Source of the DNA: Fragum whitleyi
Taxonomy: Eukaryota > Mollusca > Bivalvia > Cardiida > Cardiidae
Direction: 5' to 3'
Length of the DNA stretch: 64,000 nt
NCBI GenBank assembly: GCA_948146395.1
Contig: OX411557.1
Location: forward strand, 33,582,077 to 33,646,076
This document shows, piece after piece, positions 11,695-49,481 of this stretch; the stretch's first letter is position 1, and the number at the start of each line of letters is the position of its first letter. The notes below the pieces were generated by a model. It was not told where the DNA came from. It searched no databases and saw nothing but the letters and a program-made list of their open reading frames with translations. Made by a program: the position numbers and the translations under genes.

Positions 11695-11945
11695 TTTGTT
11701 TATTTTGAATGGGGTTTTACACCACTTTAAACAATCTTTCAGTTATCTCACCGGGACTTGAGCACTTAACAGTGGATTACTGGTATTTCTAACACCAGTA
11801 CTACCATTACATCCTTTCCTAGCCTCAAGTTACTATCCCACATAGGTCTACGATTATCGACTTACTAGTGGGAGATAAATAGTTGGAAAGGATAAGTGCC
11901 ACTGGAGATCAAAGCTATGATCTCTATACTGACAGTCCAACTGTC
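11695..11945 (-). mobile_element. tRNA-derived SINE, older copy
   Basis: Minus-strand copy of the SINE at 30,105. The 3' end (ttgaatggggttttac on the plus strand) and body are clear. The tRNA-like head near 11,900-11,945 is heavily mutated. Confidence 0.8.
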
Positions 11946-20741: not shown

Positions 20742-22572
20742 CACTGCAACTCCATTAAAACGCTGTGGTCGGGGTCCAAGAAATGAAACAGCGGAAGAAG
20801 TGGATGTATCTGCTATAACGCTGTACCCCCCCTGACGCCGCCGATCCCCCCCCCCCCCCCCCCCCCCGCGGTGAACAATAACTAGCGCGGAAACGTAATA
20901 GACACAGGGTCAATATTGATAACGATATCGGATATCTAAATATGCCTATACATGTACATATTTAGGCCATCGCATTATATAATTTTTAAACACGGCAATG
21001 AATTTAAGAACAAGCGCGGTTTATTACTTTGATATTTTTTATTTTAAGATCGCTTTGTTGTCCCCAAGCTAAACAAAACTATCTTTGATAAAGTAATCTA
21101 GTTTGTAGGGTTAAACGATCGCAGACTCCTCTTAGATCTCTGAATCCCGATTTCTCGGGCCTACCCGCCCGACAGCTGAGAAACACTGATAACGACGATC
21201 TCAAAAGGGTAGAGTTAGTAAAATCCATAAAGTTCCATAAGATCAACGAATTTCATATTTTAAATGTTGTCTTCTCGAAAATAATTATCTACGCAATCAA
21301 AATAAACAATACCCTACGTCTGATCGAAACTCTATCAAAGTTATCGAATCTCTCGGAGTGCAGTACCTCATTCTTCGATGAGCGAGAAAAAATGCCGTAA
21401 ATTCAATTAAATGAATCTGTAGCTACGACATTTGGATCGCTGATTTGCAAAGATCATCTTCACGAGTCAAGATGTATCGAAAGCTTCTCGAAAACCGTAT
21501 TAGTAAAACGTTCGTAACCCTGGGTTTGACAAGATGTTATTTCACGGCTTTGATTAATAGATAGTAGATCGTCAGGAAAGAAGTACAGACAATTGCGAAG
21601 CGACGCGGTCACCATCAGTTTCGCGCCATTTTCAGATTCTTTGTTCGACACATCTCAGCGGGAAATGTAGGTTTATATATAGCTTCCTGTTTAAATTTCA
21701 AATAAGTTGTCTATTTAGTGAGAGATAAGAATCAACGACAATAATTCAATCGAACTTTAAAACCTTACTATAATATGAAAAAGTTTAATGAAAAAGAAAC
21801 AAAATTTTATCATATATTTACAAAAAACGTAATATTTATAAGAAAATTCAACGGGATTAGCAAAGGGAGGTAATAAACCAATAAATTGGGTAAGGGGCGA
21901 GTCGCTTTTTGAATCGTTTGTCAACAGCGGTAAATGTTCAAGATTTGAGAATATAAAACGAGATGAGCTCATTTTGCGAAAACACAGCTTCTTCTGAAGT
22001 TTATTAACTTGGATTTAATCGCATCCGAGCTAGACTTTCTTTGTGTTCAATTGCGTCCCTGCCGTCGACACAGAGCAGTTGGTAGCGCGCCGGACTGTCA
22101 ATATTGGGATTCCGTGTATCTCCGACGGCGGCACTCATTCTTTCTGACTATAAGTCACTCACCCATGGGTTAATAATCGTAGACCTAAGTGAGATAGCAG
22201 TTTGGAGTTAGGGAAAGATTGTTGTAGTCGTGAGTTTGGTACTCCAGCGGTAGTGATGTAACTATACGTCTGTCAGCCATCAAACTAGCCATTTCTCTCT
22301 GACCAGAGGCATTTTATCGCCACCACTGCCCCGCGGGAGGTGTGAAAAACAATTGTATTGATTTACCTGGCTTCGCTCAGTATCGATTTTTATCTCGGTG
22401 TTTTCACCCTTCGATCTAAAATCGCGATCAAAACGGCGTTAAGTGCGGATCGGGTAACATCGCCGCAGCATCCCAAAATGGTCGACCCCCCCCAAATTTC
22501 GGGAGCCAAGCGGACCCCGCGTTATATTGGATTTAGCGCTCTAACAGATTTCGTTATAATGGAGTTGCAGTG
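20742..22572. mobile_element. pogo/Tigger-like TIR element
   Basis: Ends CACTGCAACTCCATTAAAAC and the inverse cgttataatggagttgcagtg, each next to TA. The terminal text recalls pogo/Tigger ends (family knowledge). The interior contains a SINE at 22,062 and no intact transposase. Near the left end lies a run of 22 C (20,846-20,867). Confidence 0.75.
22062..22265 (+). mobile_element. tRNA-derived SINE, internally deleted
   Basis: Plus-strand copy. The head contains gcagttggtagcgcg and is followed by the body box cactcattctttctgac. The middle and tail are shortened. It lies inside the TIR element at 20,742-22,572. Confidence 0.75.
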
Positions 22573-23029: not shown

Positions 23030-23174
23030 CTGTATTTTTTCTTCTACTCTGTAGTTCAAATCCCCCAGAAAGAACACATGATGAAATTCATTGGTAATGT
23101 CAAAATTGGTGAGATGTTTTTGGCCCAGCGACATTGTCAGTCCTTTGATTATATCACGGTAATTCTGATTACGT
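23030..23174 (-). CDS. SHIP-like gene, exon 9 seen (FFLGDLNYR catalytic motif)
   Basis: 145 bp, phase 2 to 0. The acceptor is attttttcag and the donor CAG|gtagaa. The peptide begins RNQNYRDIIKGLTMS and contains FHHVFFLGDLNYRVEE. It matches RNQNYLDILRLLSLG and THLFWFGDLNYRL of SHIP2. The Trp usual before the xGDxNYR core is Phe here, while Gly, Asp, Asn and Arg are kept. Confidence 0.95.
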
Positions 23175-23312
23175 CTGAAAAAATATCAGAGTAATTCTGA
23201 TTACTTCTGAAAAAACAGAGAAAAATGCCCAATAATAATTGAAAATATAAATGAAAACTTTACCAAATAGATGATAGTAGGTTTTTTTTAAAAAAAACAA
23301 CAATGGATAACA

Positions 23313-23753: not shown

Positions 23754-26700
23754 TTATACCAATTCCATCAGTTTTGTCACATAAAAAGACACGTTCTTGA
23801 TCGTATTCGAATTTTGACTACTAAATATAGAATTCAAATGTTCTCTAGTTGGTCTTCCCTTATACCAGGATAATAAATATAAGTCTCTAATTTCTTTGTA
23901 TTTTTCACAAATAAAGAATGCATGGAATTCGTCATCTAGAATTAATTCATTTTTGATTGAGAAGCAACAAATACATACTCTATCTTCTCTAGTTACACCG
24001 AAGTGCCTACCTATTTCAATATTTAATTTGTGATTTGAACATCCAAATCGAGATAGTGAGCGTGTATGATAAGGGTGTATATCTAATGTAATATATTTTT
24101 CAACATTCAATAAACTTTTAAAATTTTTATAAAAATCACATCTGGAAGAATTGTTAATATCACTGTGCCATGTTTGCACGGCAACGTCTTTAAGTCTTTG
24201 TTTAAAAATTTTGATAAAATGAGATGTATCGCCAATTTCTTGTGATATCCAAACTACACCAAATCCGTAAGTGAATAAAAAAAGTCTAATTTTTGAAACC
24301 CAATTTATTCTTCCTAGCTCATCATATCGTTTTAGCATATTGTAACAATTTTTTGGGTATCTCCTGGGATTCATTTCTATAAGTCTCAACCAGTACTTGA
24401 CAAATGTTATATGGTAATGATAGGCAACAGGCAATCTGCCACATTCTCCAAGAGCCATAGCATTATTAACAGTAGCACTAAGGCCAAGATAATCCTTGCA
24501 ATACTTAAACTGGATGTGCTCAATAGTTTCTGAATACTCATAACCCCAGATTTCTGCTCCGTAAGAAAGTATAGGAATAACCATTGTGTCAAAAATTTTG
24601 AAATATTCTCTGTATGAAAATTTGCCAAAAGGTTTCTGAAACTTATAAATTTGGAAAATACTTTTACGAGCCTGTGCAGCAAGTTTCCTTTTAGCCATGT
24701 TCCATGATAATTTCGGGGTAAACAATAAGCCCATATATTTATAAACTGACGTAATTCTAACAGGTTCACCTCTAAATATCCACTTTTCGCTATCCCGTAA
24801 AGGTCCCCCGTTTCGAAAGACAATAATTTCTGATTTTTGTAAATTTACTTGCATACCAGTCTCAGTACAGAATTCATCAATTACGTTAAGTTGCCTTTGA
24901 AGATTTACTGCTGTATCAGCGCAATTTGCAACGTCATCTGCGAACATTATGCATATTATATCAGCTATATCATTTGTAATAAAGATGCCTCTTTCACATT
25001 TGGCAGTTAAAGCCGTGTATAATTGATTAATAAAGATATTAAATATTGTCGTAGAGCACGAATCGCCTTGCTTTAAACCTACATTACAGGAAATTTGAGT
25101 GGTTAACTTTTGGCCTATTTTAACTGAAGCGTTTAAATTTGAATACATTGCTATAAGTGTCTTATACATTTTTCCTTGGATACCTTTTTTGTTTAAGCAT
25201 TGGAATACTTTATCATGGCTTAGGGAATCAAATGCCTTCTTAAAGTCTATATAAAGAACATAGAATCTTCCACCAGGATGCGATAAATATTTCTGTATCA
25301 TACTTTGCAAGCAAAAGATGTTATCAATGGCTGAGTATCCTGTTCTAAACCCAGATTGCATTTCATCGATGATTTCGAATTTATTTGTCCATTTTACAAG
25401 GCGATCGTTAATGATTATTGTAAATATTTTATAAAAGACATTTAAAAGAGAAATGCCTCGATAGTTTGTAGGGTCACTTCTAGAGCCTGATTTATGGACC
25501 GGCATTAAAATCGTTTCTGACCATAGACTTGGAAAAATTCCAGTACTAAAAATTTTGTTGAAAAGAAGAACCAAAGTTGGTGAAATCAGATGAATTGTTG
25601 ATTTATAAAACTCTGCAGGAATCCCATCACTTCCACTAGCCTTATTACTTTTCAGCTTTTTAATACTGTTCGTGACTTCCGCTAATGTAATATCAGTGTT
25701 TAAGACAATATCCATTTCATTGTTATAAAGAGGGTTCTCATTAATAGAAGGAACACTTCCCATTGTGTTATCGAAAAGTAATGAGTCAAAATATCTCAAC
25801 CATTCATGTGCAGGAATTGTATTTATTAACTGTTTCTTTAGAGATACACTTGTGTTTGTTTTTAAAATAGACCAAAATAGTTTAGGGTTGTTACAAGATT
25901 CTGATAAAGTTTGGCGCCTTTTACACTGGAAAGCGATTTTTTTCTTTCGACAAAGTGCTTTAAATTTGTTATTTTCAATTTTGAAATTTGAAAGATCTCT
26001 TCTATCATTTGATAGTCGGAATTTTCTTAACAGATAGAACTTTCTTTTCTTAACAGAGTTGCACTGTGTATCCCACCATTCAGGTTGTGCATCTTTAGAT
26101 GAATTTTGAGCCCGCTTATTTACAAACATATTTAGAGCAGAATCTTTATACAAACCAACTATCTTACAAACAACATCATTAATATTATCTATTCTCTTAA
26201 GAGTTTCTTCTTCTTTATAAAAGTTATCTGAGAAAGCTTTGATGAAAACATCTTTTCGATCTTCTCTCCATCTATACTGATCATAATCAGACAATGTGTT
26301 TTCATTAAAATCATTACTATTAACGTTTACATGAGACAAATCTTTAAAGTTAAGTTTACATAAAACTGGAAAATGATCAGACTGATCTTTATCTTCAATA
26401 TGAAAATAATTGATAAAGGGAAATAACTCTGGTGAGATTATATGATAATCTACCAAACTACATCTGTTATTAGAAAAACAAGTATAATGCCCTACCGCGT
26501 CATCAGAAACACGCCCATTTACAATATGGATACTATGAGTACAACAAAGATCAATCAATGTTTGCCAAATGCATTGAGTTTATCCTTATCCCGTGTGTTT
26601 CGTGACATATCGAAAGTATCAACAACATAGTCAACATCTGTGTTAAATACAAAATCGAGTGTGTCACTCGGTATATAATCGAGTAAATCACTTGTTCTTG

Positions 26701-27228
26701 CATTCAAGTCTCCCGCTAAATAAAACAGGCATTCAGGATATTCGCTTTTTACGTCAGCAATTTTATTTTCAAGTAACAAAATACCATTACTTTCATCTTG
26801 GTTCCTATAAATAGGCATGTTTTCTGGTGAAACATATGTTATGAACAAAATAATATCATTTTTAAGATCATAAATATTTGAACTAATGTGAAGAACAATG
26901 CAGTCAGTAAAATGACAATATATACGTTTAACAAAATTGTTCAAAATTAACTTTTCTTTGACAAATACTCCAACTCTCCACTATTTCTGAAACTAGAATT
27001 ATTTTTCTGTCTTATGCTATCAAAATAAATATAATCATTCAAAAAGTCAGAAAATTCATCTTTTCTTCGGCTCCAGGTTTCTAAAATACCAATAATGTCA
27101 AAATCTGATTAATATTTTTTAACACTTTGATCATTTTCAAATTTAGACAGTCCGGCTATATTCCAGGTTAATATGGAAAGAGTGGTATTTGGTAAAGAGT
27201 TAATTTGTATTGGGCCTTGGCCACACCG
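23754..27228 (-). pseudogene. LINE ORF2 (endonuclease-reverse transcriptase), three lesions
   Basis: The APE endonuclease is visible in three frames. TWNIAGL and ETW lie near 27,170-27,080, with an in-frame TAA at 27,109-27,111. GDLNAR lies at ~26,720-26,740 after a frameshift near 26,975. SDHFPV lies after another frameshift near 26,560. From there 934 codons are open: reverse transcriptase with NYRGIS (res. 365), YIDFKKAFD (436), GLKQGD (494) and FADD (539), then a C-terminal Cys/His cluster (res. ~862-885). There is no ATG in the endonuclease frame between the upstream TAG (27,229-27,231) and TWNIAGL. The copy cannot make full ORF2 but is young. Confidence 0.92.
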
Positions 27229-27333: not shown

Positions 27334-28347
27334 TTAACTAGTATTACCAATTTTATAAATTTTGTCGTTGATTTCATCATATTTGAAAATTTCGTTTTCT
27401 ATGATTAATTTGTCAAATTTTAACACAGCGTACAATTCCTCCTCTCTGGCCTCCTTTAATCGTTTCCCAAGCTTATATCTACAATGTTTAACCCTGTCCG
27501 TAAAATCTTCTTGAACAAAATAGGGGGTATCTTTCAATTTTTCCTTGGCTGATCTTAGTATCTGATCCCGATCCTTATATTTGGAGAATTTCACAACAAT
27601 GGGCGAACTATCCGGATCTCTTGATCTGACTCTGTGGGCTCTCTCGATTTCAACGTTATCAAGTTCTGGCCGATCCAAATCAAATCTAATAAAATGTCTT
27701 ATCTTCCTTTCTGTTTCATCCCATGACTCTGTTTTTGACCCAGGAATACCGTTAAACCTAAGGTTATTCCTGCGTGAATGTCCCTCGAGCGAATCAACTT
27801 TACTATTTAGCTGGTCTAGTTTAATCTTGATTTCAACATTTTCCTCTCTAAGGGCTTGATTTTCAGATTTTAATTGTTCAATTGAGGTCGAAATACCTTC
27901 CATTTTACTGTTAATAGATGCTAAGTTTGTATTAAAGTCTTGCCTCATATCACGTAGATATGCCATGATATCTGTTTCGGACGCTAAAGGTTTAGGCTGG
28001 GCTCCGGAGCTTCGGGTTTGGGGTCGATTTTTCTGAAGTGCTTGCAACTGTGGGGTCGTACCTGTTTTACGTGGCTCTGATCGTGTTGCAGGAGGAGACG
28101 CCGTTACTTCTGCGAAGGATAACGTGGTTTGTCGTTGAGTACGGGTTTCTGTAGTCGGCCCAAGGTTTAGTTCCACGTCACCACATGTCAATAATAAAGC
28201 GGACAAAATCACCGCAACCTTCAAAACGTTCATAAGTCGCCTCCTAACACTTTTTTGGACTATCAGCGTCTTCATTTTATTACGTACTCTCAATGGCATC
28301 GAGAACCCACCAATACGCTGTCTATACGTCTGTATGTCAACGCCCAT
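27334..28347 (-). CDS. LINE ORF1 protein, L1-ORF1-like with 2A-like N-terminus
   Basis: 337 aa, intact. Residues ~40-53 are hydrophobic. They are followed by a 2A-like motif GDVELNLGP at residues 56-64. Residues ~125-185 form a heptad-rich coiled coil, and from ~187 there is an L1 ORF1-type RNA-recognition domain (SRRNNLRFNGIPG, IERAHRVR, PIVVKFSKYKDRDQIL). ORF1 proteins trimerise and coat the LINE RNA. Active 2A sequences end NPGP, and here the first Pro is Leu. I chose the first ATG of the frame. Several internal Met (17, 25, 39) are possible starts. Confidence 0.9.
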   Translation of the reverse strand: MGVDIQTYRQRIGGFSMPLRVRNKMKTLIVQKSVRRRLMNVLKVAVILSALLLTCGDVELNLGPTTETRTQRQTTLSFAEVTASPPATRSEPRKTGTTPQLQALQKNRPQTRSSGAQPKPLASETDIMAYLRDMRQDFNTNLASINSKMEGISTSIEQLKSENQALREENVEIKIKLDQLNSKVDSLEGHSRRNNLRFNGIPGSKTESWDETERKIRHFIRFDLDRPELDNVEIERAHRVRSRDPDSSPIVVKFSKYKDRDQILRSAKEKLKDTPYFVQEDFTDRVKHCRYKLGKRLKEAREEELYAVLKFDKLIIENEIFKYDEINDKIYKIGNTS

Positions 28348-28424
28348 TTTGAATTTTTTCTTTAATTTCCGACCGTGACAAAAATAATGTCCGCCATTAC
28401 CAAGGGCACATCACTCCACTCCCA

Positions 28425-30104: not shown

Positions 30105-30383
30105 TGATTGATTGATTGAATGGGGTTTTACGCCGCTTTCAACATTATTTCAGTTATATCGCGGCGGCTGGAGCACCTAACAATGGATTCCTGGTATTTC
30201 TCACGCCAGTACTACCATTACATCCTTTCCTAGCCTCCAGCTGCTACCTCACATAGGTCTACGATTATCGACCCATTGGTGAGAGACAAATAGTCGGAAA
30301 GAATGAGTGCCGCCGACGGGGATCGAACCCGTGACCTCTAGTTTGACAGTCCGACGCGCTACCAACTGCGCTATGATGGCGGC
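30105..30383 (-). mobile_element. Full-length tRNA-derived SINE
   Basis: On the minus strand it starts with a tRNA-like head with an A box (tagcgcagttggtagcgcg) and a B box (ggttcgatcccc). It runs through a conserved body (cgattatcga...) and ends gcggcgtaaaaccccattc plus ATTG repeats. Both flanks carry caatctaa (30,097-30,104 and 30,384-30,391), a clear target-site duplication. The arrangement resembles mollusc SINEs such as RUDI, but I cannot confirm the family. The head does not fold as a functional tRNA. Confidence 0.85.
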
Positions 30384-31003
30384 CAATCTAAACAGTTTAC
30401 ACAGATAACTATTCATACTAAGGTTGTAAGCTGAACCAAGACAACTAAAGTATGTGCAGCATGTTGTATTAACAGACTACTGATGGCTCAGGGCCAATCA
30501 GTTAAAACTTCCTGTTATTTTATAGGCAGTCACAAGCCATATTCACACTGAGTCATGATTTGTTTTAAGCCAACAGAAACATCCCTAGATCAGTATTTAC
30601 TGGCTTAAAATGGCCTGTGTCACATGACCAGTTGGTGTTAAGAGATGTATTCATGAAATGACAAGAAGTCATAGTTAAAGTGGTACAAATTGTCAATAAT
30701 TTATACCTTCTGAATTAAATATCAAAATATCAATGTTCATTCACACTTAACAAATTGTCTTTGTGAAACAAAGAAAAGTTCATTTTAAAAATCTGACTTT
30801 TATAAACATGTATGACATTGACATTGTAAGGTAACACGGCCCTTGCCAGTTTGTAGATGACACTAGATGACACTAGGTAATTGTCCCAGGATCTTCAGAG
30901 CTTGAAAATTCTACTAATCTGCTCATCCTGCATGATTTTTTCCTTCTTTGTCTGTAGAAACAGGACAAGTAGATTTTGCAAAATTTCACTAATGAAATTA
31001 ATG

Positions 31004-33061: not shown

Positions 33062-33228
33062 TCAACACTTCTAATACAAGTAGATCTTCGTACACGACTA
33101 ATACAATGTTTATAATGTTTCAGCATTGACTATACCAGTCCTGACAGATAATCTATGTATACCACTTATAGAATCTTTATATTCTGGCTTGACAAGGATC
33201 ACTAGCCATATATCCAAGAAAATGAAAT
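33062..33228 (-). pseudogene. Decayed copies of exon 7
   Basis: The minus strand still reads LVILVKPEYKDS and LSVRTGIVNA, clearly related to exon 7 but diverged and without its splice sites. A second fragment matching the middle of the unit (around tcgtacacgactaatac) abuts it. These look like older products of the same duplication process. Confidence 0.7.
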
Positions 33229-34175: not shown

Positions 34176-34425
34176 CATCCAAAATACCTACCTAAAGCAT
34201 TGGCTATACCAGTCCTGACAGATGATCTTTGTACACGACTAATTCCATGTTTATGTTCTGGCTTGACAAGGATCACTAGCCGTATACTCCTTAATGTACG
34301 CATCCAAAATACCTACCTAAAGCATTGGCTATACCAGTCCTGACAGATGATCTTTGTACACAACTAATACAGTGTTTATGTTCTGGCTTGACAAGGATCA
34401 CTAGCCACATACTCCTTAATGTACG
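34176..34425 (-). pseudogene. Two tandem partial copies of SHIP-like exon 7 (125-bp unit)
   Basis: Units at 34,176-34,300 and 34,301-34,425 repeat the 3' two thirds of exon 7 plus its donor and about 20 bp of intron. They still read LVILVKPEHKH and SSVRTGIANAL, with the GTAGGT donor kept. They lack the acceptor and the first ~16 codons. The nearest AG (cattaag) would put the exon out of frame and hit TAG. I read them as duplication debris rather than usable alternative exons. Confidence 0.85.
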
Positions 34426-34441
34426 CATCCAAAATACCTAC

Positions 34442-34585
34442 CTAAAGCATTGGCTATACCAGTCCTGACAGATGACCTTTGTACACGACTAATACAGTGT
34501 TTATGTTCTGGCTTGACAAGGATCACTAGCCGTATACCCCATAGTGTACACACTTCTAATAGTTCCATGTCAACCAACACACATG
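34442..34585 (-). CDS. SHIP-like gene, exon 7 seen (VRTGIANALG), tandemly duplicated downstream
   Basis: 144 bp, phase 1 to 1. The acceptor is ctttgtag and the donor TTAG|gtaggt. The peptide contains CTLWGIRLVILVKPEHK and SSVRTGIANALG, matching SLWNIKVAVLVKPEHE and SSVKTGIANTLG. Two further copies of its 3' part plus donor follow in tandem at 34,176-34,425, and older fragments lie at about 33,062-33,228. This copy is the only one with the full exon, the correct acceptor and the right phase. Confidence 0.92.
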
Positions 34586-36923: not shown

Positions 36924-37101
36924 TTTTTTCATGTGATATAGTAGTTTGGTCGAGTGTTTCTCGACTTGTCTGTTTGAGTATTGAATACCGACCATTCTGC
37001 AGGTCTACGGTCAGGGTAAGAGAATGTGTAACCTTATTGTGTTTAATCTTCTTTACCTGGAATTCAATTTGGAAAGAGATATTTTGTACTTCTATTCTAA
37101 T
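36924..37101 (-). CDS. SHIP-like gene, exon 4 seen (before the catalytic domain)
   Basis: 178 bp, phase 0 to 1. The peptide starts IRIEVQNISF and ends TISHEK. The core HSLTLTVDLQNG aligns with KFTLSVDVEGG of SHIP2, and the junction with exon 5 gives SHEKILHLIKS (human THDRIRQLIKS). The acceptor is ttctatttgag. It is weak and sits 44 bp from the end of a MITE. The donor is A|gtaagt. The segment between IEV and HSL is about nine residues longer than in human SHIP2. Confidence 0.85.
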
Positions 37102-38139: not shown

Positions 38140-39924
38140 TCAAATTTACTATGTGGTATATGTCTTTACTATGAGGAGAGGAATGGTATAGATTATATAG
38201 TATGACTCAAATGTACTTTGGTATATACAGTGAAGAGAGGAATGGTCCATAAAGTTTACCTCTAATTTACTCTGTGGTATAAAATGTCTATACTGTGAGG
38301 ACTAGAAGGGTTGATTGATAAAATGGAGTTTTACGCTGCTTTCAACAATTATTCAGTTATGTTACAGCAGCTGGAGCGCCTAACAATGGTTTCCTGGTTT
38401 CCTCTCACCAGCACAACCAGCAGATCTTTTCCTAGCCTCCAGCTGCTATCTCACATAGGTCTACGATTATCAACCAATTGGTGAGAGACAAAATGGTTGG
38501 AGAGAATGAGTGCTGCCATTGGGGATGGAACCTGGGACCTCTAGATTGACAGTTTGATGCGCTACAAACTGTGCTATGACGGCAGCCCAAGGACAAGAAG
38601 AGACTAGATTTGTAAAGATTACCTCAAATTGACTTTGTGGTATATAATGTCTATACTGTGAAGAGAGGAAGGGTCCAGATTTATAAAGTTTACCTCAAAT
38701 TTACTCTGTGGTATATAATGTAATAATATATATAATGTATAAACTGTGAGGAGAGGAATGGTCCAGATTTATAAAGTTTATCTCAAATTTACTCTGTGGT
38801 ATATAATGTATAAACTGTGAAGAGAGGAAGGGTCCAGATTTATAAAGTTTATCTCAAATTTACTCTGAGGAAAATAATGTATAAACTGTGAAGAGAGGAA
38901 GGGTCCAGATTTATAAAGTTTATCTCAAATTGACTCTGTGGTATATAATATCTATACTATGAGGACAAGAAGGGTCCAGATTTATAAAGTTTACCTCGAA
39001 TTTACTCTGTGGTATGTAATGTCTATACTGTGAGGACAAGAAGGGTCCAGATTTATAAAGTTTACCTCGAATTTAGTCTGTGGTATATAATGTCTATACT
39101 GTGAGAACAAAAAGGGTCCAGATTTATAAAGTTTACCTCAAATTTACTCTGTGGTATATAATGTATAATGTATAAACTGTGAGGACAAGAAGGGTCCAGA
39201 TTTATAAAGTTTATCTCAAATTTACTCTGTGGTATATAATGTATAAACTGTGAAGAGAGGAAGGGTCCAGATTTATAAAGTTTATCTCAAATTTACTCTG
39301 GGGAAAATAATGTATAAACTGTGAAGAGAGGAAGGGTCCAGATTTATAAAGTTTATCTCAAATTGACTCTGTGGTATATAATGTCTATACTATGAGGACA
39401 AGAAGGGTCCAGATTTATAAAGTTTACCTCGAATTTACTCTGTGGTATATAATGTCTATACTGTGAGGACAAGAAGGGTCCAGATTTATAAAGTTTACCT
39501 CGAATTTACTCTGTGGTATATAATGTCTATACTGTGAGAACAAAAAGGGTCCAGATTTGTAAAGTTTACCTCAAATTTACTCTGTGGTATATAATGTCTA
39601 TACTGTGAGGACAAGAAGGGTCCAGATTTATAAAGTTTACCTCAAATTTACTCTGTGGTATATAATGTCTATACTGTGAGAACAAAAAGGGTCCAGATTT
39701 ATTAAGTTTACCTCAAATTTACTCTGTGGTATATAATGTCTATACTGTGAGGACAAGAAGGGTCCAGATTTATAAAGTTTACCTCAAATTTACTCTGTGG
39801 TATATAATGTCTATACTGTGAGAACAAAAAGGGTCCAGATTTATAAAGTTTACCTCAAATTTACTCTGTGGTATATAATGTCTATACTGTGAGGACAAGA
39901 AGGGTCCAGATTTATAAAGTTTAC
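38140..39924 (-). repeat. 71-bp minisatellite made from exon 3 end plus 5' splice site
   Basis: About 20 units of 71 bp. The spacing of the gggtccag box is exactly 71 for nearly all steps between 38,830 and 39,973. Read on the gene strand, each unit holds a pyrimidine tract ending cctcacag, 33 coding-like bases and GAG|gtaaac. Six units (after the boxes at about 38,759, 38,830, 38,901, 39,192, 39,263 and 39,334) have lost the GT. The left part is degenerate and interrupted by a SINE. Confidence 0.92.
38309..38588 (-). mobile_element. tRNA-derived SINE inserted in the 71-bp array
   Basis: A minus-strand copy of the same SINE as at 30,105. It ends with the ttttacgctgctttcaac box and begins with a decayed tRNA-like head. 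The flanks aggactagaag and aggacaagaag look like a target duplication, although the array itself supplies similar sequence. Confidence 0.8.
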
Positions 39925-40080
39925 CTCAAATTTACTCTGTGGTATATAATGTCTATACTGTGAGGACAAGAAGGGTCCAGATTTGGGTTGTAGATCTCCA
40001 GCTGTAAACACATCATTACTGATCTGTTCCACAACTTCATACTCAGATGAGATGGATGCAAGTTGTAAAGTTTCTTGAGC
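39925..40080 (-). CDS. SHIP-like gene, exon 3 seen, whose 3' end seeds a minisatellite
   Basis: 156 bp, phase 0 to 0, 52 residues from AQETLQLASISSEYEVV to YIPQSKFE. The acceptor is aatttcag and the donor GAG|gtaaac. The end YIPQSKFE followed by IRIEV of exon 4 matches TIPVQAFE-VKLDV in SHIP2, which fixes the donor. The last ~48 bases of the exon plus the first 23 of the intron form the unit of the 71-bp array immediately downstream at 38,140-39,924. The exon is therefore the template of that array. Confidence 0.85.
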
Positions 40081-44298: not shown

Positions 44299-44376
44299 TT
44301 TTGTTTGTACATTTAGTATGTCAGATCTGACCCGACTGAGCTGCTCTAACATAGATGGAATAACAGGACCCGACAA
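44299..44376 (-). CDS. SHIP-like gene, exon 2 seen (helical linker)
   Basis: 78 bp, phase 0 to phase 0, 26 residues. The acceptor is ctgcttgcag and the donor AAA|gtaagt. The peptide contains MLEQLSRVRSDILNVQTK, matching the SHIP helix before the catalytic region (human LVLKLSVLKDFLSGIQKK). It joins exon 3 in frame to give QTK-AQETLQ, as in QKK-ALKALQ of SHIP2. Confidence 0.8.
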
Positions 44377-47586: not shown

Positions 47587-49481
47587 ACAAGAGGGCCATA
47601 GTGGCCCTTAATCGCTCACCTGAATTAACAATCTTAAAATGTTTTTCTAAGATTTGACCCCATGACCTACTTTTTGACTCCACTTGACCCAATTCCAAAC
47701 TTGTCCGAGATTTCATCAAGTGATCATTCTGTACAATTTTCAGGTTGATTGGGCAAAGAATATGGCCTCTAGAGTGTCCACAAGGTTTTTCTAAGATTTG
47801 ACCCCGTGACCTAGTTTTTGACCCCACTTGACCCAATTTCAAACTTGTCCGAGATTTCATCAAGATAATCATTCTTACCAATTTTCAGGTTGATTGGGCT
47901 AAAAATATGGCCTCTAAAGTGTCCACAAGGTTTTTCTAAGATTTGACCCTGTGACCTAGTTTTTGACCCCACTTGACCCAATTTCAAACTTGTCCGAGAT
48001 TTCATCAAGATAATCATTCTGACCAATTTTCTTGTTGATTGGGCTAAAAATATGGCCTCTAAAGTGTCCACAAGGTTTTTCTAGATTTGACCCCGTGACC
48101 TAGATTTTGACCCCAGTTGACCCAATTTCAAACTTGTCCGAGATTTCATCAAGATAATCATACTGACCAATTTTCAGGTTGATTAGGCTATAAATATGGC
48201 CTCTAGAGTGTCCACAAGGTTTTTCTTAGATTTGACCCCGTGACCTAGTTTTTGACCCTACTTGACCCAATTTCGAGCTTGTCCGAGATTTCATCAAGAT
48301 AATCATACTGACCAATTTTCAGGTTGATTGGGCTAAAAATATGGCCTCTAGAGTGTCCAAAAAGTTTTTCTAAGATTTGACCCCGTGACCTAGTTTTTTA
48401 TCCCACTTGATCCAATTTCAACCTTGTCCAAGATATCATCAAGATAATCATTCTGACCAATTTTCAGGTTGATTTGGCCAAAAATATGGCCTCTAGAGTG
48501 TCCACAAGGTTTTTCTAAGATTTGACCCCGTGACCTAGATTTTGACCCCACTTGACCCAATTTCAAACTTGTCCGAGATTTCATCAAGATAATGATTCTG
48601 ACCAATTTTCAGGTTGATTAGGCCAAAAATATGGCCTCTAGAGTGTTGACAAGGTTTTTCTTAGATTTGACCCCGTGACCTAGTTTTTGACCCCACTTGA
48701 CCAAATTCCGAACTTGTCCGAGATTTCAGCAAGATAATCATTCTGACCAATTTTCAGGTTGATTGGGCTATAAATATGGCCTCTAGAGTGTCCACAAGGT
48801 TTTTCTAAGATTTGAACTCGTGACCTAGTTTTTGACCCCACTTGACCCAATTTCGAACTTGTCCGAGATATCATCAAGATAATCATTCTGACCAATTTTC
48901 AGGTTGATTGGGCTAAAAATATGGCCTCTAGAGTGTCCACAAGGTTTTTCTAAGATTTGACCCCCTGACCTAGTTTTTGACCCCACTTGACCCAATTTCG
49001 AACTTGTCCGAGATTTCAGCAAGATAATCATTCTGACCAATTTTCAGGTTGATTGGGCTATAAATATGGCCTCTAGAGTGTCCACAAGGTTTTTCTAAGA
49101 TTTGACCCCGTGACCTAGTTTTTGACCCCACTTGACCCAATTTCGAACTTGTCCAAGATTTTATCAAAGTAATCATTCTGACCAATTTTCAGGTTGATTT
49201 GGCCAAAAATATGGCCTCTAGAGTGTCCACAAGGTTTTTCTAAGATTTGACCCCGTGACCTAGTTTTTGACCCCACTTGACCCAATTTCGAACTTGTCCA
49301 AGATTTTATCAAGATAATCATTCTGACCAATTTTCAGGTTGATTGGGCTAAAAATATGGCCTCTAGAGTGTCCACAAGGTAAATGTTGAAGACGGACGAC
49401 GGACGACGCACGACGGACGACGGACATCAAGTAACCCCAAAAGCTCACCTTGAGCACTTCATGCTCAGGTGAGCTAAAAAA
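47587..49481 (+). repeat. Family 1 repeat expanded to about 12 modules of 145 bp
   Basis: Head acaagagggccatagtggcc, aatcgctcacctga. About 12 tandem ~145-bp modules share tatggcctctagagtgtcca, gatttgaccccgtgacctag and aatcattctgaccaattttc. Then a gacggacgacggacgacg run and the hairpin gagcacttcatgctcaggtg, agctaaaaaa. The repeated minus-strand ORFs of 71 codons are shadows of this array. Confidence 0.92.

What the first reader, a model, noticed from the sequence alone, without database searches (positions are those of the whole stretch)
38140..40080. An exon end and its 5' splice site amplified into a ~20-copy 71-bp minisatellite
The array unit is the last ~48 bases of exon 3 of the SHIP-like gene plus the donor GAG|gtaaac and 17 more intron bases. 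On the gene strand every unit carries a pyrimidine tract and cctcacag, 33 bases open in phase 0 (YRHYIPQSKFE-like) and, in 13 units, a GT donor. Each is a possible in-frame 11-residue microexon, and the gene has many competing 5' splice sites. The variants I translated have no stop, despite coding changes (FIHY, SQFE). Array membership is seen directly. Use as exons is inference.
Basis: partly seen in the sequence, partly recalled or inferred. Interest (0 to 1): 0.87.

Follow-up and report, generated by a model that had tools for sequence, protein, structure and literature searches.

The report
Exon tail copied into intron array
In a mollusc (likely a clam relative) the end of one exon of a signalling-enzyme gene is present in 19 further tandem copies in the next intron, 13 of them with the splice site intact; splicing likely ignores most of them, but 11 would each make a tiny in-frame exon, so the locus can test how splicing chooses among identical sites.

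Summary
The array is real, and its source is the exon. The gene is a bivalve SHIP2-like inositol 5-phosphatase on the minus strand. The 71-bp unit is the last 60 nt of exon 3 plus the first 11 nt of intron 3, not 48+23. There are 20 clear units: U1 is the exon end itself, U2-U20 are intronic, and U20 is split by a SINE. Fourteen of 20 keep GT. The exon end is conserved in relatives, and the array was found nowhere else in the 1.22-Gb assembly, so the exon seeded a locus-specific minisatellite. Running exon 3 on to a later donor gives a stop codon. An included 33-nt cassette only lengthens a linker before the first C2 domain. Changes in the array favour synonymous sites (10 of 19), but also outside the cassette and in unusable units. 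Most likely the first donor is used, with decoy leakage and rare microexon inclusion. No transcript could be examined. Splice-site minisatellites (IFI6) and spliced tandem repeats (UBC) are known, so this is a new variant.

The parts
44299..44376 (-). Exon 2 of the SHIP2-like gene, phase 0/0
   Evidence: tblastn of Ruditapes, Mactra and Mya proteins; splice sites read
39925..40080 (-). Exon 3 (156 nt, 52 codons, phase 0/0), ends IPQSKFE
   Evidence: tblastn; conserved in relatives; translation
39914..39984 (-). Unit U1: last 60 nt of exon 3 plus first 11 nt of intron 3; source copy with the authentic donor gtaaac at 39919-39924
38612..39984 (-). Contiguous array U1-U19, 71-bp unit (U12 78 bp, U18 88 bp)
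   Evidence: TRF, unit table, alignment
39126..39558 (-). Six-unit block U7-U12, duplicated as U13-U18 at 38683-39125 (96% identical over 443 columns)
39126..39203 (-). U12: 7-bp insertion, 40-nt segment, GT donor, stop if included
38683..38770 (-). U18: 17-bp insertion, 50-nt segment, GT donor, stop downstream if included
38260..38292 (-). U20 cassette (YRHFIPQSKLE, GT donor) beyond the SINE
38310..38600 (-). tRNA-derived SINE splitting U20 (ends approximate); family dispersed genome-wide: 41 further matches when 40 of 7401 candidates were scored
   Evidence: sub-threshold tRNA head, 23.3 bits against a gathering score of 29
38140..38248 (-). Degenerate distal units without intact donors
36924..37056 (-). 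Exon 4 (starts VKKIKH, phase 0/1), weak predicted acceptor
34176..34549 (-). Second exon-tail array in the same gene: about the last 108 nt of exon 7 plus 17 nt of intron, 3 copies, each with gtaggt
23151..23215 (-). Two-copy 32-bp duplication across the exon 9 acceptor

Best explanation
Intron 3 of this SHIP2-like gene holds 19 tandem copies of the last 60 bases of exon 3, 13 of them with its 5' splice site intact, and splicing likely still uses the exon-joined site, so the copies would act mostly as decoys and only rarely as 11-residue microexons. Shown: the exon end is conserved coding sequence, the copies were found only here in a search of the whole assembly, the copies nearest the exon are least diverged, and a SINE has landed in a distal copy. 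Inferred: an ancestral tandem duplication spanned the exon 3/intron 3 boundary. It was tolerated because the first donor still makes the normal mRNA, and it grew by unequal exchange or slippage with the selected exon copy as master. Predicted: under exon definition (flanking introns 4.2 and 2.9 kb) the first of the equal donors is favoured. Leakage to later donors as exon extension meets a stop within the second unit, and so likely triggers decay. Occasional inclusion of a cassette from U3 onwards adds 11 residues ahead of the first C2 domain and leaves that domain's own start (IPQSKFE|VKK) unchanged, so it would be tolerated.
For: Exon 2, 3 and 4 phases agree, and the spliced model carries PF24150 (first C2, starting at IPQSKFE) and PF22669. 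YRPYIPQSKFEVKK is found in Ruditapes, Mactra and Mya, and F[EDK]V at this place in 51 of 52 relatives aligned, the other being truncated there. The I[PQ]xx(x)F[EKDQ]V motif is in 104 of 120 relatives, and 0 of those 104 has a second copy of the 11 residues (at least 7 of 11 alike) just upstream. The array matches only this locus in the 1.22-Gb assembly (2 of 2 matches). Spliced exons 2-5 match only this locus (24 of 24 matches: four exons and 20 array copies), so no retrocopy or paralog was found. Divergence from U1 rises with distance: Spearman 0.74, P 0.0005, 18 units, which are not independent. All 18 extension products (donor positions U2-U19, of which 12 have GT) stop after residue 76. 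With near-equal donors in long introns the upstream 5' splice site is preferred (PMC9225289, abstract and section 6; human data).
Against: Predicted acceptors of U1-U19 score 9.1-10.5, or 7.3 in the two CATAG units, above exon 3's own (5.3) and exon 4's own (1.6), so cassettes could compete well (recalled approximate human matrix). The synonymous preference is also what translated cassettes would give, and it holds for singletons (5 of 7, P 0.004-0.009; 4 of 6 with site 45 counted once, P 0.015-0.027). The upstream preference in PMC9225289 is partial (60% over all near-equal events), so appreciable leakage is possible. No RNA was seen. Three junction-spanning duplications in one gene (3 of 11 exons against 0 of 20 kinase exons, P 0.037; post hoc) hint that passive chance may not be the whole story.
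Confidence: 0.68

Rival explanations
1. The array is a working bank of in-frame microexons: splicing includes none, one or several 33-nt cassettes, lengthening the linker before the first C2 domain in 11-residue steps, and the cassettes are kept by selection.
For: 12 of 20 units are complete GT in-frame cassettes; strong predicted acceptors; synonymous excess in the 33 nt, 6 of 12, P 0.005-0.014; each insertion leaves the C2 start unchanged.
Against: Counting the one ambiguous change as non-synonymous gives 5 of 12, P 0.035-0.112. Variable sites are as dense in the 33 nt as outside. Synonymous changes also occur outside the cassette and in units without donor or frame. 6 of 20 units lost GT and 2 GT units are frame-broken. 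38-nt spacing makes neighbouring cassettes unlikely to be used together (inference). 0 of 104 relatives shows a duplicated block, though none of them is this species.
Confidence: 0.15
2. The array is a poison switch: the 13 intronic decoy donors draw U1 snRNP and send a set fraction of transcripts to nonsense-mediated decay, so array length tunes SHIP expression.
For: Extension to any donor position U2-U19 stops after residue 76. 11 of the 12 GT donors among U2-U19 are identical to the true one, and U20's also reads gaggtaaac. The same gene has a second donor array (exon 7, 3 copies), whose later donors also give stops.
Against: Upstream donors are favoured under exon definition (PMC9225289). 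No expression data, and no sign that donors are conserved: 6 of 20 units lost GT.
Confidence: 0.12
3. The array is an ordinary intronic satellite or an assembly artefact with no special tie to the exon.
For: The window is rich in tandem arrays (21.4% against a mean of 4.8% in 20 random 10-kb stretches), and 3 of 22 junctions in arrays is what that local coverage predicts (P 0.88).
Against: The unit is the exon's own conserved coding tail and was found nowhere else in the genome. Unit differences, a block duplication and an inserted SINE argue against collapse or assembly error (inference).
Confidence: 0.05

Closest known systems
Human IFI6 (6-16) minisatellite giving multiple splice donors (Turri et al. 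1995; seen only as cited in PMC4526556 passages; the paper itself is not held)
   Same: A minisatellite repeats splice donor sites at an exon end; later repeat units can serve as donors.
   Different: Here the unit is 71 bp, carries 60 nt of conserved coding exon and a predicted acceptor, so it is a whole in-frame cassette. Donor-only extension gives stops here, whereas IFI6 uses two downstream units as donors.
Human polyubiquitin UBC, tandem array of dual-specific splice sites (PMC10809524, abstract and passages)
   Same: Tandem coding repeats bounded by splice sites, with splicing that can include a variable number of units.
   Different: In UBC the same sequence is both 5' and 3' site, introns are multiples of the unit, and the repeats are coding monomers. 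Here donor and acceptor are separate, predicted introns are 71 nt multiples minus 33 (shifted by the two insertions), and the copies are intronic.
[quoted passage not shown] PMC4974935 passages; PMC3629103 passages)
   Same: Tandem duplication of exonic DNA brings cryptic splice signals into play, in fission yeast with several 24-nt copies.
   Different: Here the duplication spans an existing exon-intron boundary and sits inside an existing intron; no new intron is needed for a normal protein.

Membership tests
SHIP1/2 inositol 5-phosphatase | 5-phosphatase domain and first C2 (PH-related) domain in order | tested here: met
   PF22669 E 2.1e-33 and PF24150 E 5.2e-9 in the spliced exon 2-9 model; 76% identity to the Ruditapes protein
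SHIP1/2 inositol 5-phosphatase | N-terminal SH2 domain | tested here: inconclusive
   Present in the Ruditapes protein, not located in the window; tblastn reaches only residue ~215 of it, so it may lie upstream
Minisatellite | Head-to-tail units of about 10-100 bp at one locus | tested here: met
Minisatellite | Copy number varies between individuals | not testable with these tools
   Only one copy of the locus was found in the one assembly held
IFI6-type splice-donor minisatellite | Array begins at an exon's own donor and repeats it | tested here: met
   U1 is the exon end; 14 of 20 units keep GT
IFI6-type splice-donor minisatellite | More than one repeated donor is used in mRNA | not testable with these tools
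   No transcript of this species found: best relative 76% identity; 0 of 233 candidates at E <= 1e-10 in the fragment search
UBC-type dual-specific splice-site array | The same site serves as donor and acceptor; intron length is a multiple of the unit | tested here: not met
   Predicted acceptor and donor are 33 nt apart; predicted introns from U1 are 38, 109, 180 ... nt
Tandem-duplication intron gain | A new intron arises inside former exon sequence | tested here: not met
   Copies lie inside intron 3, and exons 3 and 4 keep matching phases
Microexon (short in-frame exon in mRNA) | Included in mature transcripts | not testable with these tools
   No RNA data

The most novel reading that the evidence does not exclude
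A coding exon has turned its own tail into a length-variable bank of ready-made microexons: splicing draws none, one or several of ten spliceable 33-nt cassettes (among U3-U20), so one gene makes a ladder of SHIP proteins whose linker before the first C2 domain grows in 11-residue steps, with the minisatellite's length setting the isoform range in each animal.
Probability: 0.15. Interest if true: 0.75.

Novelty: new variant of a known kind. Interest (0 to 1): 0.46.

Why it matters
It is a natural experiment with 14 GT donors in near-identical context, 12 of which also carry an in-frame cassette. One RNA data set would show directly how distance from the true exon governs donor and cassette choice. 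It also suggests an origin route for new in-frame exons: copy an exon tail that happens to hold an AG and a pyrimidine tract. If the cassettes are used, minisatellite length would set protein linker length, a link between repeat instability and protein form.

Tried and rejected
Xylosyltransferase C-terminal hit (PF12529, E 0.006) on the exon 3 open frame: below its cut-off (16.7 against 25 bits) and overridden by the SHIP alignment.

Chance that splice junctions fall in arrays: 3 of 22 junctions (E3 donor, E7 donor, E9 acceptor). This is not unusual at the window's own array coverage (P 0.88), is borderline at the genome mean of 4.8% (P 0.086), and is 3 of 11 exons against 0 of 20 kinase exons (P 0.037). 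It was tested after being seen. The 20 kinase exons were picked by hand from 152 matches, some with a stop inside the match, and were tested for an array within 20 nt of the match, not at a fixed junction. I draw no conclusion. The 22 junctions leave out exons whose splice sites I did not fix: the ones near 61.5, 17.4, 11.2 and 1.5 kb.

Transcripts of the species: two protein searches found none. The first lists the best 120 of 2772 proteins; the second gave 0 hits at E <= 1e-10 among 233 candidates.

Retrocopy of the spliced mRNA: none found.

Search of the genome for the exon 7 unit and for COX1, to name the species, did not complete.

Splice-site scores use a human weight matrix recalled from memory, so only large differences mean anything.

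Full report
What was checked. The finding describes a 71-bp array next to exon 3 of a SHIP-like gene on the minus strand. TRF gives one array at 38729-39984 (period 71, 17.6 copies, 92% matches) and an overlapping 88-bp row at 38641-38810. Cutting the gene strand at a fixed anchor gives 19 contiguous units, U1-U19, from 39984 down to 38612. A 20th is split by a tRNA-derived SINE, and beyond it lie degenerate pieces down to about 38140.

Gene. tblastn of Ruditapes, Mactra and Mya SHIP2-like proteins against the window finds 15 exon-sized matches on the minus strand. The nearest protein is that of Ruditapes philippinarum at 76% identity over 96% of the region searched, so the host is a bivalve or close to one. 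That is an inference; no name was available. The spliced exon 2-9 model carries PF22669 and PF24150 above their cut-offs. Exon 2 ends and exon 3 begins in phase 0, exon 3 ends and exon 4 begins in phase 0. Exon 3 is 156 nt, and the introns around it are 4218 and 2868 nt.

Unit and origin. U1 is the exon end itself: AAATCTGG...GAG (60 nt, KSGPFLSSQYRHYIPQSKFE) followed by gtaaactttat (11 nt). Compared with the copy 71 bases further on, identity is 10 of 10 in each block from 39984 down and 0-5 of 10 above it, so this is the segment that was repeated. I aligned 52 of the 120 relatives listed (2772 were found). The exon end is recognisable (F[EDK]V) in 51; the other is truncated there. Ruditapes, Mactra and Mya read YRPYIPQSKFEVKK. 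By pattern, 104 of 120 have it, and none of the 104 has a second copy of the 11 residues just upstream. A search of the 1.22-Gb assembly with the array finds only this place and its own distal units. The tool skips very common words, so this is not proof of uniqueness. Spliced exons 2-5 give 24 matches, all here: four exons plus 20 array copies. The direction exon to intron is therefore established as far as these tools go.

Internal history. Mismatches to U1 rise along the array (U2-U8: 0-3; U9-U19: 2-9; Spearman 0.74, P 0.0005; units are not independent). U7-U12 and U13-U18 are a duplicated six-unit block, 96% identical. Near the exon two unit types alternate (U2-U8). Where units differ in amino acid within the 33 nt, U1 has the residue of the nearest relatives at five sites (Y, R, I, S, K); at the sixth U1 has His and they have Pro. 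This fits growth from the exon side with the selected copy as master; the exchange mechanism is inferred.

Splice potential. GT is kept in 13 of 19 units, 14 of 20 with U20; AT replaces it in U9-U11 and U15-U17. On a recalled human matrix the donor scores 6.7 (6.3 in U19; the gene's ten other fixed donors score 5.2-10.0). The acceptors of U1-U19 score 9.1-10.5, or 7.3 in the two CATAG units. Exon 3's own acceptor scores 5.3 and exon 4's 1.6; the best real ones, of exons 2 and 8, score 9.8 and 9.9. From the first donor to the U2 acceptor is 38 nt, to U3 109 nt, to U19 1269 nt. Human introns of 43 nt are spliced (PMC4463651 passage); I saw no animal example at 38. So U2 is unlikely as a separate exon, and neighbouring cassettes are unlikely to be used together. 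Of the 12 in-frame GT cassettes one is exonic and one is U2, which leaves ten.

Outcomes. Running exon 3 on to any of the 18 later donor positions U2-U19 (12 of them GT) gives a stop after residue 76. Inserting one cassette leaves the frame open for the 33-nt units U2-U19 and gives a stop for U12 and U18; the U20 cassette is 33 nt and open. The first C2 model begins at IPQSKFE, so an inserted copy lengthens the linker and leaves the domain's own start unchanged. In human data, near-equal donors flanked by long introns favour the upstream one (PMC9225289, abstract and section 6). Hence the prediction that U1 dominates, with some leakage.

Is there constraint? Taking U1 as ancestral, 10 of 19 derived states in the 60 coding nt are synonymous, 8 are not and 1 is a stop, against 3.7-4.3 synonymous expected (P 0.001-0.004). 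The other two frames give 5 of 19 and 2 of 19. Within the 33 nt it is 6 of 12 (P 0.005-0.014), or 5 of 12 with the one ambiguous change left out of the synonymous count (P 0.035-0.112). Collapsing clustered changes leaves 6 of 13 (P 0.026-0.055), and singletons alone are 5 of 7 (P 0.004-0.009). But the 27 nt that a cassette would leave out show the same tendency (4 of 7, P 0.07-0.10). The density of variable sites is no lower in the cassette (11 of 33 against 11 of 38, P 0.80), and usable against unusable units do not differ (3 synonymous, 2 not, against 3 and 5, counted by hand, P 0.59). Copying from the selected exon explains all of this without use of the cassettes. The sample is too small to separate the two.

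Background. Tandem arrays of period 20 or more cover 21.4% of this window and on average 4.8% of 20 random 10-kb stretches of the same genome, though 2 of the 20 reach 23-25%. The same gene has two more junction-spanning duplications: the exon 7 tail with its donor (3 copies of 125 bp, about 108 nt exon plus 17 nt intron; later donors give stops; a decayed fourth copy at 33122-33215) and the exon 9 acceptor (2 copies of 32 bp). At local coverage 3 of 22 junctions is unremarkable (P 0.88). Against 0 of 20 hand-picked kinase exons it is not (P 0.037), but that comparison was made after the fact.

Known relatives. A minisatellite giving several splice donors is known in IFI6 (passages of PMC4526556 citing Turri 1995). 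Stochastic splicing of tandem coding repeats is known in UBC (abstract and passages of PMC10809524). Tandem duplication as a source of splice signals is known in potato, fission yeast and vertebrates (passages of PMC4974935 and PMC3629103). Ten paper searches were answered; the nine that bore on this topic showed me, in listings, no array of complete exon cassettes born from an exon tail. The library is partial, so this is no claim of absence from print.

Verdict. A real, exon-born, locus-specific minisatellite carrying repeated splice sites, likely mostly bypassed by splicing. It is a new variant of a known kind, of moderate interest, and decidable with one RNA data set.

Noticed in passing
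34176-34549 (minus strand), decayed copy 33122-33215: A second exon-tail array in the same gene: about the last 108 nt of exon 7 plus 17 intron nt in 3 copies, each with gtaggt; use of donor 2 or 3 would give a stop.
   Followed up: partly
23151-23215 (minus strand): A 32-bp duplication across the exon 9 acceptor gives two tttttcag sites.
   Followed up: partly
window, whole: Tandem arrays of period 20 or more cover 21.4% of the window against a mean of 4.8% (range 0-25%) in 20 random 10-kb stretches of the same genome.
   Followed up: partly
23754-26980 and 27334-28410 (minus strand): Long open frames that look by eye like a LINE (reverse transcriptase-like and a coiled-coil ORF1-like frame) in the intron between exons 8 and 9; not searched.
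   Followed up: no
38310-38600; also about 30108-30384, 22059-22219, 11708-11936: tRNA-derived SINE family with four copies in the window and 41 further matches in the genome when 40 of 7401 candidates were scored.
   Followed up: partly
47641-49380: A 12-copy, 145-bp array (93% matches) whose unit resembles by eye the 146-bp and 135-145-bp arrays elsewhere in the window.
   Followed up: no
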